Positions 5,897 to 63,355 of a DNA stretch of 64,000 nucleotides are shown in pieces. Where the stretch lies: positions 687,001 through 751,000 of the forward strand of contig NZ_JAGINK010000001.1 of NCBI RefSeq assembly GCF_017875955.1. The letters run 5' to 3'. A program made the position numbers and the translations under genes. The number at the start of each line of letters is the position of its first letter. Position 1 is the first letter of the stretch. Under the pieces are notes generated by a model. It saw nothing but the letters and a program-made list of their open reading frames with translations. It was not told where the DNA came from and made no database searches. Origin of the DNA: Pseudomonas sp. BP8. GTDB lineage: Bacteria; Pseudomonadota; Gammaproteobacteria; Pseudomonadales; Pseudomonadaceae.

Positions 5897-5910
5897 GTGT
5901 GTGTTCAGTA

Positions 5911-5999
5911 CTGGCCTCTTCGCGGGGCAAGCCCGCTCCTACAGGTTTCGAGTTGCACCCCGATCCTGTAGGAGCGGGCTTGTCCCGCGAAGAGGCCGG
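5911..5999. repeat. REP pair (type A), inverted
   Basis: Two REP copies face each other with a ~20-bp spacer, between the terminator of the YcaC-type gene and the end of the convergent DUF3077-like gene. Confidence 0.85.
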
Positions 6000-6016
6000 T
6001 GCAAACCACCGCAAAC

Positions 6017-6310
6017 TCAGTTCACGGGCTGCGATTCGATCCCCTCCAGCATCGCCTCGACCAATCCATCCGCCATCTCGACCGAATGCAGGTTCGCCCA
6101 CAACAGACTCTGGCCTTTTTCATCCAGATGCGCGAGCGCCTTTTGGCCGCTGGCGTAGGCGCCGCGCAGGTACAGCGCGACATGCACCAGGGCGTCGTGG
6201 GCGGTGATGTTTGGGTTGACGGTGAACATGGGGGGATGGCCGGCGTCGCAGTGGCCGAAGGGGCGTTGGGTGGTGTTGGGGAGAGGGGGATCCGGGACTA
6301 TTTTTTTCAT
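6017..6310 (-). CDS. Small DUF3077/DUF6124-like protein
   Basis: A 97-residue cytoplasmic protein. It begins MKKIVPDPPLPNTT, the same opening as the small protein encoded at 62844. Residues ~29-90 (MFTVNPNITAHDALVHVALY, then LLWANLHSVEMADGLVEAML) resemble the DUF3077-type domain of the gene at 63095, so this looks like a single-gene version of that two-gene locus. The start at 6310 has AAGGAG about nine bases upstream. Expression probably starts at a promoter near 6505-6533 and passes through a ~190-nt structured leader. The function of these families is unknown. DUF assignment is from memory of Pseudomonas proteins and is moderate. Confidence 0.75.
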   Translation of the reverse strand: MKKIVPDPPLPNTTQRPFGHCDAGHPPMFTVNPNITAHDALVHVALYLRGAYASGQKALAHLDEKGQSLLWANLHSVEMADGLVEAMLEGIESQPVN

Positions 6311-6500
6311 TGCAGAAAACTCCTTGAGTTGAGCTGCAATCAACCGTTTCCACACAGAAGGCGGCAGCTGTACGCGGGGTGGAAAACCGGCCAAGAAGGA
6401 AACCGGCAGGCCATAGGCCTCCCGCGCACAACTGCCATAAGAGCAGTCCTATCTTGACCATCCGGATTTCCACATCCGATCGCTGAACCGACAGCGACCG
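6311..6500 (-). ncRNA. Structured 5' leader RNA, copy 1
   Basis: Read on the minus strand, the leader opens with a hairpin (6477-6500, CGGTCGC paired to GCGATCG). A 16-bp stem follows with arms at 6421-6436 and 6363-6378, enclosing two smaller hairpins. Motifs GTGGAAA, TTTTCCAC and GTGTGGAAAC could pair in alternative ways. The same layout occurs at 62641-62843 with different bases but conserved pairing. I cannot assign it to a named RNA family. Confidence 0.7.
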
Positions 6501-6504
6501 GGAC

Positions 6505-6533
6505 AGCCTAGAGGGCATGGTTTCCTTGGACAA
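6505..6533 (-). promoter_or_regulatory. Predicted sigma-70 promoter of the leader and DUF3077-like gene
   Basis: On the minus strand, TTGTCC (6528-6533) and TAGGCT (6505-6510) are 17 bp apart, and the expected start falls at the first leader hairpin. The leader at 62641 has the same arrangement (TTGTCG, 17 bp, TAACTT). A CCTACGA element lies upstream at 6555-6561. Confidence 0.55.
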
Positions 6534-6634: not shown

Positions 6635-6787
6635 CTGGGGCCGCTTCGCGACCCTTTCCGACCGGTCCGGCGCTCCGGCAAGGCCGCTCCTACAGGGGAC
6701 CGTGATCGCCTCCGGCTCTGAGCCTAGCGCGGTACCTGTAGGAGCGGCCTTGCCGGAGCGGTCGGAAAGGGCTGCAAAGCAGCCCCC
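6635..6787. repeat. Large inverted repeat (type C, CCGGCAAGGCCGCTCCTACAGG core)
   Basis: Two arms, from GGGGCCGCTTCGCGACCCTTTCCGACCGG and its near complement, surround facing copies of CCGGCAAGGCCGCTCCTACAGG. It resembles the type A REP at the CCGCTCCTACAGG end but differs elsewhere. It lies at the end of the antiporter gene. Confidence 0.8.
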
Positions 6788-34534: not shown

Positions 34535-34747
34535 ATGAGCGAGCAGCCGCGGCCGCCCAAGCCGCTCTACAGCAACGTCAGCCCCGCCGTGCAGTCGCCG
34601 TGCATCAATGTCTGCCGGCTCGACGAACAGCGCGTCTGCACCGGCTGCCATCGGCACGTCGAGCACATCCGTGAATGGCGCTCGGCCGACGACCAGCGGC
34701 GCCGGCAGATCTGTCGCGAAGCCGAGGCACTGCGCGCACGGGCTTGA
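34535..34747 (+). CDS. DUF1289 protein with conserved cysteines
   Basis: A 70-residue protein with the DUF1289 pattern: SPCINVCRLDEQRVCTGCHR has four cysteines likely to bind a metal or cluster, followed by HIREWRSADDQRRRQICREA. Function unknown. It starts one base after the cyaY stop and is probably translated with it, which hints at an iron-linked role (inference). Confidence 0.88.
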   Translation: MSEQPRPPKPLYSNVSPAVQSPCINVCRLDEQRVCTGCHRHVEHIREWRSADDQRRRQICREAEALRARA

Positions 34748-34805
34748 GTATTTACCCCGCTGTGGTACTGTCGGGCTCTGCATCGGTGCAGCCGAAAGCA
34801 TTCTC

Positions 34806-34831
34806 AAACCCCGCCCTTGGGCGGGGTTTTG
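34806..34831 (+). terminator. Rho-independent terminator between the DUF1289 gene and rnk
   Basis: AACCCCGCCC-TT-GGGCGGGGTTTT hairpin with a T-rich tail, ~50 bp before rnk. It ends the cyaY transcript, or attenuates rnk. Confidence 0.85.
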
Positions 34832-34882
34832 CTTTATCTGCGCACTACAAATTGCCTGTTGAACACGGAGTCTGACTGGATC

Positions 34883-48122: not shown

Positions 48123-48788
48123 TCAGTCTGCGACTGACAGCAGTTCTATCTCGAACACCAGCGGTGTATAGGGCGCGATCAGGTCGCCCGCACCTTCGGC
48201 GCCGTAGGCCTGCGCCGAAGGGATCACCAGGCGCCATGTGCTCCCCGCTTTCATCTTCGGCAGCGCCACCTGCCAGCCTTCGATCACCGAATCCAGGTTG
48301 AACCACTGGGCTTGCTGATTCTGGTCGAACACCGAGCCATCAGGCAGCCTCCCCACATAGCGTACCTGGACCTTGCCGTTAGCCGTTGGCTGCGCGCCAT
48401 GGCCTGCGACCAGCTCGCTGTAGAGGATGCCTTCGGGTAATTCATGCACGCCCGCGCGGGCGCGTTCGTTGGCCATGAAACGTGTTTCCACCGCTTGCAG
48501 CTTGGCCTCCTGAGCCTGCGCGGAGGCAGCCATGGCCTGCTCCTCATGCTGCTGCAGGATATGCTGCATGCGCGCCTGATCGAGCTTCAGCGGTTGCTCT
48601 TGATAGGCTTGGCGCAGGCCCTCTACCAAGGCTTCGAGCTGCAGGCCAGGGACCTCCTGACGCAATCGCTCGCCCAGACTGGCGCCGAGACTGTAGGCCA
48701 GGTCCTGGTCGTTGGCGGGGGTGCTTTCAGGGGCGCCGAGGGCAAAGGGAGCCACCAGGCAAAGGCCAATAAGAAGATGACGAGGCAC
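48123..48788 (-). CDS. FKBP-type peptidyl-prolyl isomerase, secreted
   Basis: A 221-residue protein with a signal peptide (MPRHLLIGLCLVAPFALGAP). An N-terminal helical dimerisation domain (~25-105) precedes an FKBP domain (GKVQVRYVGRLPDGSVFDQN, SVIEGWQVALPKMKAGS, YTPLVFEIELLSV), as in FkpA and Mip. Acts on proline bonds in periplasmic proteins. Canonical residues are slightly changed (IPSAQAYGAEGAG). Confidence 0.9.
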   Translation of the reverse strand: MPRHLLIGLCLVAPFALGAPESTPANDQDLAYSLGASLGERLRQEVPGLQLEALVEGLRQAYQEQPLKLDQARMQHILQQHEEQAMAASAQAQEAKLQAVETRFMANERARAGVHELPEGILYSELVAGHGAQPTANGKVQVRYVGRLPDGSVFDQNQQAQWFNLDSVIEGWQVALPKMKAGSTWRLVIPSAQAYGAEGAGDLIAPYTPLVFEIELLSVAD

Positions 48789-59570: not shown

Positions 59571-59677
59571 CTGGTGGCCAGGGCGTTCACGCCAGTCGAT
59601 CAACGAATACTGATCGTGAACACATCCAGCCACCCCCGAATAAAAGCGCCGTCAGCATCGGCGCGAATGAGGGCATT
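59571..59677 (+). ncRNA. gabT-type leader RNA
   Basis: Nested pairing in front of gabT: GGTGGC (59573-59578) with GCCACC (59629-59634), GTTCAC (59585-59590) with GTGAAC (59616-59621), and GATC (59598-59601) with GATC (59612-59615). A conserved gabT RNA motif in the 5' leaders of Pseudomonas gabT genes has been described from comparative genomics, and this fits its place and nested form. Ligand and role are unknown. Confidence 0.7.
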
Positions 59678-62580: not shown

Positions 62581-62636
62581 CCTACGAGTCTTGCGGAAGC
62601 AGCGCTGTTGTCGGGCAAACCCCTCAGGGATAACTT
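62581..62636 (+). promoter_or_regulatory. Predicted promoter and CCTACGA element of leader copy 2
   Basis: CCTACGA at 62581-62587, TTGTCG at 62608-62613, 17 bp, TAACTT at 62631-62636. The CCTACGA box lies 60 bp from the first leader hairpin here and 61 bp in copy 1 (6555-6561, minus strand). Confidence 0.5.
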
Positions 62637-62640
62637 CACC

Positions 62641-62843
62641 GGGTCGCTTTGTTCTGGCGACCGGGTGTGAGAACCCGACAACACAAGCTGCGGCAGTTTT
62701 ATGGCGGCCGTGCGCGGGCAGACTTCGGTCTGGCCGGGTTTCTCTTGTGTCTCGGTTTCTCACCCTGTGCACGGCTGCCACCCTTCGTTCCGTGAGAAAG
62801 GACGCCAGTGGTGGTTATCTCAAACCACACGAGAGTTCTGACC
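62641..62843 (+). ncRNA. Structured 5' leader RNA, copy 2
   Basis: First hairpin GGTCGC / GCGACC (62642-62662), then a 16-bp stem with arms GGCGGCCGTGCGCGGG (62703-62718) and CCTGTGCACGGCTGCC (62764-62779) enclosing CAGAC-TTCG-GTCTG and a second hairpin. GGTGTGAGAACCC, GGTTTCTCACCC and CCGTGAGAAAGG could pair in alternative ways. A last hairpin GTGGTT/AACCAC precedes the ribosome site. Compared with copy 1, several pairs change from U-A or U-G to C-G while pairing is kept. Confidence 0.75.
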
Positions 62844-63098
62844 ATGAAAAAGATCGTCCCCGATCCACCCCTCACCCCACCCGTTTCCTACTTCTCGATC
62901 ATCAGCGGTCTCGCCGGCGAAGACGCGCTGGCTGCCTCCGGCACGCTGATGGACTTGCTCAATCGAAACCTCGAATCCTACCTCTGCTCCGAGCAGGTTG
63001 ATGTGGGTGATTTCCGCCTCGAAAATGCCCAGATACTGTCGCAGATGCTTTGCGTCCTGGTGGCGCACGCCAGAGCGGAAAAGGCGCTGCGCACATGA
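62844..63098 (+). CDS. Small protein with MKKIVPDPP start (DUF6124/DUF3077-like)
   Basis: An 84-residue cytoplasmic protein beginning MKKIVPDPPLTPPVSYFSII, followed by a helical region (LAASGTLMDLLNRNLESYLC, FRLENAQILSQMLCVLVAHA). It shares its opening with the protein at 6017-6310. Family assignment is from memory of similar Pseudomonas proteins and is modest. GAGAG lies about ten bases upstream. Its stop overlaps the next gene (ATGA). Confidence 0.75.
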   Translation: MKKIVPDPPLTPPVSYFSIISGLAGEDALAASGTLMDLLNRNLESYLCSEQVDVGDFRLENAQILSQMLCVLVAHARAEKALRT

Positions 63099-63355
63099 CT
63101 GACTTTTCGCTGCAGGCGCGCACTGTGGGGACAGAACCTTTCATGGAGCTGTTTCGAGTGCGTGAAGACATTCCGCTCGACCACGCTTTTTCCGAGTTGT
63201 CGGTGTTGCTGGGATGCATTCGGCATCTGGCGACCGAAGCGGAGATGGAGGGTGATCGGCTGGCGGGGAGTGCGGTGCGGATTCTCAGCGGGTTCGCCAA
63301 GGCGCTGATTGATGACATGGAGCTGGGGATGAACAGGGCTTTGGATCAGCGTTGA
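63095..63355 (+). CDS. DUF3077 family protein
   Basis: An 86-residue protein with the DUF3077 pattern (VGTEPFMELFRVREDIPLDH, AFSELSVLLGCIRHLA, FAKALIDDMELGMNRAL). Function unknown. Translationally coupled to the small gene before it; the pair is expressed behind leader copy 2. The single gene at 6017 seems to combine the MKKIVPDPP start with a related domain. Confidence 0.82.
   Translation: MTDFSLQARTVGTEPFMELFRVREDIPLDHAFSELSVLLGCIRHLATEAEMEGDRLAGSAVRILSGFAKALIDDMELGMNRALDQR

What the first reader, a model, noticed from the sequence alone, without database searches (positions are those of the whole stretch)
62641..62843. Structured leader RNA in front of a small DUF3077-type operon, with covariation to a second copy
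Seen directly: a ~200-nt leader with an opening hairpin, a 16-bp long-range stem (62703-62718 with 62764-62779) and inner hairpins. The copy at 6311-6500 (minus strand) has the same layout, and several stem positions change on both sides so that pairing is kept. Three short motifs (GTGTGAGAA, TTTCTCAC, GTGAGAAA) could pair in mutually exclusive ways, which suggests a switch or an antisense-type control. I cannot match it to a known RNA family.
Basis: partly seen in the sequence, partly recalled or inferred. Interest (0 to 1): 0.82.

Follow-up and report, generated by a model that had tools for sequence, protein, structure and literature searches.

The report
Private C4 antisense switches in Pseudomonas
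This stretch holds two of the 24 copies, in one Pseudomonas-like chromosome, of an RNA known from phage P1, and in 21 of 22 copies compared it is at least as complementary to the start region of the small gene just behind it as to that of any other copy, so each copy likely acts as a private off-switch for its own gene.

Summary
The leader is real but not a new RNA family: it is a C4 antisense RNA (Rfam RF01695; 75.9 bits at 62697-62785, 75.7 bits at 6357-6442 minus). The layout matches phage P1 c4-icd-ant: a1, b1, C4, a2, b2 on the Shine-Dalgarno of ORF1, and a second gene (DUF3077) overlapping ORF1 by 4 nt. Likely mechanism: C4, cut from the transcript, pairs a2/b2 and blocks ORF1; predicted, Rho then stops transcription before ORF2. 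Unusual: 24 copies here; 53 of 58 other genus members sampled have C4 (up to 54-55 copies) against 6 of 184 other class members sampled. In two genomes C4 fits its own downstream gene at least as well as any other in 21/22 and 42/49 loci. DUF3077 (15/17; 5/6) and DUF6124 (35/41 in a second genome; 0/1 here) genes lie behind a C4. ORF1s share Pro-[Asp/Asn]-Pro-Pro at codons 6-9 (52/71) within a C-rich, G-poor head. Multi-copy C4 RNAs are published for Acinetobacter; private cis pairing in Pseudomonas I did not find in the searches made. Binding, processing, Rho step, trigger and protein function are untested.

The parts
62608..62636 (+). possible sigma-70 promoter TTGTCG-N17-TAACTT (predicted, weak)
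   Evidence: read by hand; the same TTGTCG-N17-TAACTT is the best scan hit at L009, but for this locus the scan preferred another site further upstream
62642..62662 (+). opening hairpin
   Evidence: fold; part of the c4-a1b1 match (29.6 bits, below cut-off 46.7)
62667..62673 (+). a1 target GTGAGAA (pairs a')
   Evidence: 7 bp
62681..62687 (+). b1 target ACACAAG (pairs b')
   Evidence: 7 bp
62697..62785 (+). C4 antisense RNA; by analogy with P1 the mature RNA would be about 62703-62782
   Evidence: RF01695, 75.9 bits, cut-off 45; P1 comparison
62742..62750 (+). b' loop CTCTTGTGT
62756..62763 (+). a' segment TTTCTCAC
62792..62799 (+). a2 target GTGAGAAA (pairs a')
   Evidence: 8 bp
62827..62835 (+). 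b2 target ACACGAGAG over the Shine-Dalgarno of ORF1 (pairs b')
   Evidence: 9 bp with one G-U, at -17..-9 from the ATG
62844..63098 (+). ORF1, 84 aa, MKKIVPDPP...; C-rich, G-poor start
   Evidence: two database hits, one being itself
63095..63355 (+). ORF2, 86 aa, DUF3077, overlaps ORF1 by 4 nt
   Evidence: PF11275 47.2 bits; start 4 nt before the end of ORF1
6459..6511 (-). second copy: a1/b1 region; a1 GTGGAAA at 6467-6473; b1 weak (6 nt at 6452-6457, read by hand)
   Evidence: RF03163 49.3 bits, cut-off 46.7
6357..6442 (-). second copy: C4 antisense RNA (b' 6391-6398, a' 6379-6385)
   Evidence: RF01695 75.7 bits
6347..6353 (-). second copy: a2 GTGGAAA
   Evidence: 7 bp
6320..6327 (-). second copy: b2 TCAAGGAG over the Shine-Dalgarno
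   Evidence: 8 nt with G-U
6017..6310 (-). second copy: target ORF, 97 aa, MKKIVPDPP..., weak DUF6124/DUF3077
   Evidence: 17.3 and 17.2 bits, below both cut-offs; 88 homologues

Best explanation
The leader carries a C4 antisense RNA (Rfam RF01695) whose loop is complementary to the ribosome-binding site of the small gene directly behind it (ORF1, 62844), so it likely blocks translation of that gene and, as predicted from the C-rich, G-poor start of ORF1, would then let Rho stop transcription before the overlapping DUF3077 gene. Steps: (1) one promoter ahead of 62640 would make a transcript a1-b1-C4-a2-b2-ORF1-ORF2 (inferred). (2) C4 would be cut out of it, probably by RNase P before the GG at 62703 (inferred from P1 and from Acinetobacter reads in print). 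(3) a' and b' can pair either with a1/b1 or with a2/b2: the complementarity is shown, binding is not. (4) b' on the Shine-Dalgarno would shut ORF1 (inferred from P1), and ORF2 would fall with it by translational coupling (the 4-nt overlap is shown) and/or Rho (inferred). (5) a1/b1 would be the decoy that frees the message, as short IsrK does in Gifsy-1 (inferred). The copies are tuned to their own genes (pairing preference shown in two genomes), so the genes would be switched separately.
For: C4 model match over its full length, both copies. Same order of sites and the same 4-nt gene overlap as the annotated P1 c4-icd-ant1. Loop-SD complementarity own against other: 20.2 v 10.9 (22 loci) and 18.2 v 10.5 (49 loci), 0 of 20,000 permutations in each, also inside classes with the same a' core; loop-SD duplex overlaps -13..-7 of the start in 67 of 71. 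Loop plus a'-a2: own target best or equal in 21/22 and 42/49. With opening energy: -6.2 own v -0.9 and -1.5 other. DUF3077 15/17 and 5/6, DUF6124 35/41 behind a C4; random place 0.23%. ORF1 heads C-rich and G-poor beyond amino-acid need (60 of 60 loci with C minus G above the synonymous mean; mean z C +1.95, G -2.14); ORF2 starts less so in 11 of 11.
Against: No expression data for this organism were available. RNAcofold of C4 with its message shows no own-target preference (own -0.4, other -0.3; own strongest for 2/22), though it cannot draw pairing into a closed loop. With opening energies the own target is the strongest in only 13/22 and 21/49. a' does not prefer its own locus inside a' classes in this genome. 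b' of the window copy has only 7-9 pairs. c4-a1b1 at 62630-62681 is below its cut-off. Of six C4-less DUF relatives with a readable start, four keep a milder C-over-G bias, so that bias is not specific to C4 control. The Rho step in P1 is recalled, not read here. The one DUF6124 match of this genome has no C4 near.
Confidence: 0.75

Rival explanations
1. C4 copies act mainly in trans, on each other's messages or on incoming phages, as was proposed for the Acinetobacter C4 sRNAs.
For: Proposed in PMC5320573 (passages and section 16). Some cross pairs are as good as own pairs: 4/462 and 15/2352 on the summed score, 35/462 and 253/2352 with opening energies. L015 and L016 have a C4 but no usable target start behind it.
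Against: Own-locus preference in both genomes; phage tblastn with ORF2 found no match.
Confidence: 0.12
2. The leader is a cis-only attenuator: alternative folding of the nascent transcript (a1/b1 with C4, or C4 with a2/b2) decides translation, without a free C4 RNA.
For: All sites lie in one transcript in order; a1/b1 and a2/b2 compete for the same a'/b'.
Against: The C4 fold with its GG start and ACC end matches P1, where C4 is a processed RNA (PMC5320573 section 16); C4 is seen as a separate RNA in Acinetobacter and Burkholderia.
Confidence: 0.1
3. Decaying phage remnants without present function.
For: Some copies have broken or lost targets (L011, L013, L015, L016); C4 was first described in phages.
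Against: Stem pairing 98% with compensatory changes; pairing to the own message kept with different letters over 71 loci; synonymous bias in ORF1 heads.
Confidence: 0.03

Closest known systems
C4 antisense RNA of phages P1 and P7 (c4-icd-ant), Rfam RF01695
   Same: Rfam model; order a1, b1, C4, a2, b2, ORF1, ORF2; b2 just ahead of the ORF1 start; 4-nt overlap of ORF1 and ORF2
   Different: Window genes are DUF3077-type and an orphan ORF1, not Icd and Ant; chromosomal, 24 copies; short spacer between b1 and C4 at 62.6 kb
Group 1 C4-like sRNAs of Acinetobacter baumannii (PMC5320573; passages and section 16)
   Same: Many C4 copies in one bacterial chromosome (21 there), variable pairing loops, signs of RNase P-type processing in reads
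   Different: No target gene is named in the parts I read; here the adjacent gene fits
IsrK-STnc1160-orf45-anrP of Salmonella Gifsy-1 (PMC4825925; abstract and passages)
   Same: Leader RNA, then a processed RNA complementary to it, then a short ORF ahead of the main gene; leader RNA can free translation
   Different: Prophage; short IsrK ends at a terminator; only 4 of 24 loci here have a run of 5 or more T in the 70 nt before C4, and neither window copy does
CI RNA of satellite phage P4 (described in PMC4825925, passage)
   Same: Processed antisense RNA pairing with sites on both sides of itself
   Different: Ends transcription of an untranslated leader; not compared by sequence here

Membership tests
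C4 antisense RNA (RF01695) | Covariance model match over the gathering score | tested here: met
   75.9 and 75.7 bits, cut-off 45, model 1-87 of 87
C4 antisense RNA (RF01695) | a' and b' complementary to target sites upstream and downstream | tested here: met
   7, 7, 8 and 9 pairs at 62.6 kb; weak b1 in the second copy
C4 antisense RNA (RF01695) | b2 at the ribosome-binding site of the next gene | tested here: met
   -17..-9 and -17..-10 from the ATG; 67 of 71 loci overlap -13..-7
C4 antisense RNA (RF01695) | Processing to about 77 nt by RNase P | not testable with these tools
   GG at 62703 and the CC behind the stem fit; A-T-G and C-C columns invariant in 24 of 24
P1 immI-type operon | Targets are a cell-division inhibitor Icd and an antirepressor | tested here: not met
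   ORF1 no Pfam match, ORF2 DUF3077; Bro-N proteins do follow C4 at L058, L087, L114 elsewhere
c4-a1b1 (RF03163) | Model match over the gathering score | tested here: inconclusive
   second copy 49.3 over 46.7; copy at 62630-62681 29.6, under it
IsrK (RF01394) | Model match | tested here: inconclusive
   Not listed at the gathering score nor at E <= 1 around either copy; but of overlapping clan members only the best is shown
P4 CI RNA | Sequence or structure match | not tested
   Considered as an analogue only

The most novel reading that the evidence does not exclude
Pseudomonas chromosomes run a genome-scale set of mutually insulated C4 antisense switches, up to about 50 per cell, each locked by its own loop to its own Shine-Dalgarno: the bacterial counterpart of dozens of phage immunity groups in one cell. 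Most drive small DUF3077/DUF6124-type helical proteins whose shared Pro-[Asp/Asn]-Pro-Pro head doubles as a Rho-loading site, so that a gene switched off is also cut short as RNA.
Probability: 0.4. Interest if true: 0.8.

Novelty: new variant of a known kind. Interest (0 to 1): 0.55.

Why it matters
If the pairing does what it does in P1, these genomes hold dozens of natural, mutually insulated antisense-target pairs, and two families of unknown function (DUF3077, DUF6124) gain a regulatory logic and a direct test of what they do: remove the antisense and watch the cell. It also gives the multi-copy C4 RNAs of Acinetobacter a simple prediction to check: look at the Shine-Dalgarno of the gene next door.

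Tried and rejected
Riboswitch or unknown RNA family: rejected by the C4 match. Defence system: PADLOC has no match for the three window proteins at E <= 1. Phage carriage of ORF2: tblastn against 50,697 phage records, no match at E <= 0.01, although a PHROG family of unknown function (phrog_36471) matches ORF2 at 9.4e-10. Fold of ORF2: helical hairpin; Foldseek against the PDB gave 112 matches at E <= 10 and 0 at E <= 0.001, so no function follows; the model of the second copy's ORF was not searched. RNAcofold as a test of private pairing: negative; followed by hybrid plus opening energies, which was positive. A first ORF2 control with a too strict pattern found 3 loci and was replaced by 11 ORF2s of this genome picked. 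One search read minus-strand loci in the wrong orientation; repeated. A promoter scan gave no uniform site for the 24 loci. That Pro-[Asp/Asn]-Pro-Pro stalls ribosomes was considered and not tested. Rows dropped: L015 and L016 (no usable start) of 24 own loci and L074 of 50 in G049; the 5 weakest of 55 G049 matches were not fetched; 11 of 71 ORF1s under 60 aa were left out of the composition test; 3 of 9 C4-less relatives gave no readable start.

Full report
What it is. cmscan of the window against Rfam 15 matches the finding to C4 antisense RNA, RF01695, at 62697-62785 (+), 75.9 bits, and the second copy at 6357-6442 (-), 75.7 bits, both over the cut-off of 45 and over the whole model. Upstream lies the a1/b1 target region, RF03163: over its cut-off in the second copy (49.3 v 46.7), under it at 62630-62681 (29.6).

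Anatomy, with the names used for P1 (in my scripts 'ap' is the loop, that is b', and 'bp' is a'). a' is TTTCTCAC, 62756-62763; it can pair a1 (GTGAGAA, 62667-62673) or a2 (GTGAGAAA, 62792-62799). b' is the loop CTCTTGTGT, 62742-62750; it can pair b1 (ACACAAG, 62681-62687) or b2 (ACACGAGAG, 62827-62835), which covers the Shine-Dalgarno of ORF1, ATG 62844. ORF1 (84 aa) has no Pfam match at E <= 1 and two database hits, one of them itself. ORF2 (86 aa) overlaps it by 4 nt and is DUF3077. The annotated P1 record has the same order: a1 48255, b1 48269, C4 48343-48419, a2 48423, b2 48452-48459, icd from 48470, ant1 overlapping icd by 4 nt. The second window copy has one target ORF, no DUF ORF2, and a weak b1.

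How many. The window's genome has 24 C4 matches, all over the cut-off, and 20 RF03163 matches, 15 over the cut-off. Of 58 other genomes of the genus sampled, 53 have C4 at E <= 0.001; by my count of the table the median is 15.5 copies and the maximum 54, 55 when that genome, G049, is searched alone (52 over the cut-off). Of 184 other genomes of the class sampled, 6 have C4, with 1-3 copies each, 8 in all. Both large samples used stricter filters that lose weak matches.

Private pairing. I compared each C4 with its own and the other targets of the same genome: 22 of 24 loci here, and 49 in G049 (50 of 55 matches fetched, one dropped). Loop b' with the SD region: 20.2 own, 10.9 other; in G049 18.2 and 10.5; 0 of 20,000 permutations in each, also inside classes sharing the a' core; own target best or equal for 17/22 and 32/49. 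a' with a2 and with the upstream stretch prefers the own locus overall (0 of 20,000) but not inside a' classes in this genome. Summed over b'-b2 and a'-a2, own is best or equal in 21/22 and 42/49; other pairs as good: 4/462 and 15/2352. With the cost of opening the message the own loop pair has -6.2 kcal/mol against -0.9 and -1.5, 0 of 20,000 permutations, and is strongest in 13/22 and 21/49. RNAcofold shows no such preference; it cannot draw pairing into a closed loop. Outside the genus, all 8 C4 copies found have a loop complement of 7-9 nt 31-38 nt behind the C4 (no permutation control; for L110 no ORF of 30 aa or more was found there).

What is controlled. Within 1.2 kb behind a C4 on the same strand lie 15 of 17 DUF3077 matches of this genome, 5 of 6 in G049, and 35 of 41 DUF6124 matches in G049; a random place has 0.23%. 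The one DUF6124 match of this genome is not near a C4. In the genus sample all 45 genomes with DUF3077 have a C4 match and 9 of the 14 without it do (Fisher p 0.0004). Other genes behind a C4 include Bro-N proteins (L058, L087, L114) and a SymE-type toxin (L115). Models of ORF2 and of the second copy's ORF are helical hairpins; ORF2 has no telling PDB match.

The head of ORF1. 52 of 71 ORF1s have Pro-[Asp/Asn]-Pro-Pro at codons 6-9, one at codons 7-10, and none elsewhere in these proteins. Pro stands at codon 6 in 63 of 71, against 6% of 192 background ORFs; P1 Icd (MVNANPC...) has it too. The first 75 nt of 60 ORF1s have C 0.409 and G 0.136, against 0.306 and 0.282 in background ORFs, beyond what the amino acids require; C exceeds G to about +190. 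ORF2 starts are less biased in 11 of 11. This fits a Rho-loading stretch laid bare when C4 blocks translation, which is inference. Limits: the loci are paralogous; of nine C4-less relatives six had a readable start, none with the codon 6-9 motif, but four of the six keep a milder C-over-G bias; P1 icd shows only a patchy bias.

Prior work, and what I saw of it. P1 C4, Icd and Ant: passages of PMC8198154, PMC8201110 and PMC12197685. RNase P processing of P1 C4, b' at ribosome-binding sites, and 21 C4-like sRNAs in A. baumannii: PMC5320573, passages and section 16. IsrK: PMC4825925, abstract and passages. Burkholderia C4 as a 90-nt RNA in one unit with isrK: PMC4603805, one passage. Weinberg 2010: PMC2864571, passages. 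Searches for 'C4 antisense RNA' with Pseudomonas (6 papers), 'DUF3077' (1), 'c4-a1b1' (1), 'C4 RNA' with antirepressor and bacteriophage (3), 'RF01695' (4), 'DUF6124' (0) and 'C4 antisense' (17, 15 listed) showed, by listing and by the passages read, none on C4 control of these genes; subscription papers are mostly outside that library. Rho-dependent termination in P1 icd is recalled, from no call.

Verdict. A known RNA family and, by the features I could test, a full member of it; new in number of copies in this genus, in preference of each copy for its neighbour, and in the target families. The mechanism up to the ribosome-binding site is well supported by sequence and by analogy with P1; processing, the Rho step, the decoy role of a1/b1, the trigger and the protein function are inferred or open.

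Noticed in passing
L087:227-739 (-), L058:1643-2161 (+), L114:1640-2254 (+): Bro-N (phage-antirepressor-type) proteins directly behind a C4; L087 also bears the N-terminal MIKVTPNPPE head shared with DUF6124 ORF1s, as if the C4 cassette and its head had been placed in front of another gene.
   Followed up: partly
L115:1635-1832 (+); L112 and L116:1184-1447 (-): In another genus of the class a SymE-type toxin (PF08845, 48.8 bits) follows a C4; two further C4 copies precede proteins with a weak, below-cut-off CsrA match.
   Followed up: partly
L001, L002, L003: C4 copies of this genome with another kind of target: 45-52-aa ORFs without the P[DN]PP head, and a T-rich, terminator-like stretch between a1/b1 and C4, as in IsrK.
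   Followed up: no
L011, L013, L015, L016, L021: C4 copies whose ORF1 is very short (26-32 aa) or has no usable start, pointing to gain and loss of these modules.
   Followed up: no
L006, L007, L008, L010, L011, L016, L020, L023, upstream of a1: In 8 of 24 loci the best promoter-scan hit is TTG...-N17-TAG[TG]CT, so the conserved CUAGUCU at the 5' end of the Rfam c4-a1b1 model may be a -10 box rather than RNA.
   Followed up: partly
5908-6002, 6667-6764: Inverted repeats with TGTAGGAGCGGGCTTG-type arms, probably REP-like elements, next to the second copy; they raise false microRNA matches in Rfam.
   Followed up: no
34735-34838 (+), 59573-59634 (+): Known cis-regulatory RNAs: Pseudomonas rnk leader (RF01772) and gabT RNA (RF01738).
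   Followed up: no
literature, PMC9630843: In furfural-evolved P. putida a one-base insertion inside a DUF3077 pseudogene (PP_RS01475) is reported (one passage read); whether that locus has a C4 was not checked.
   Followed up: no
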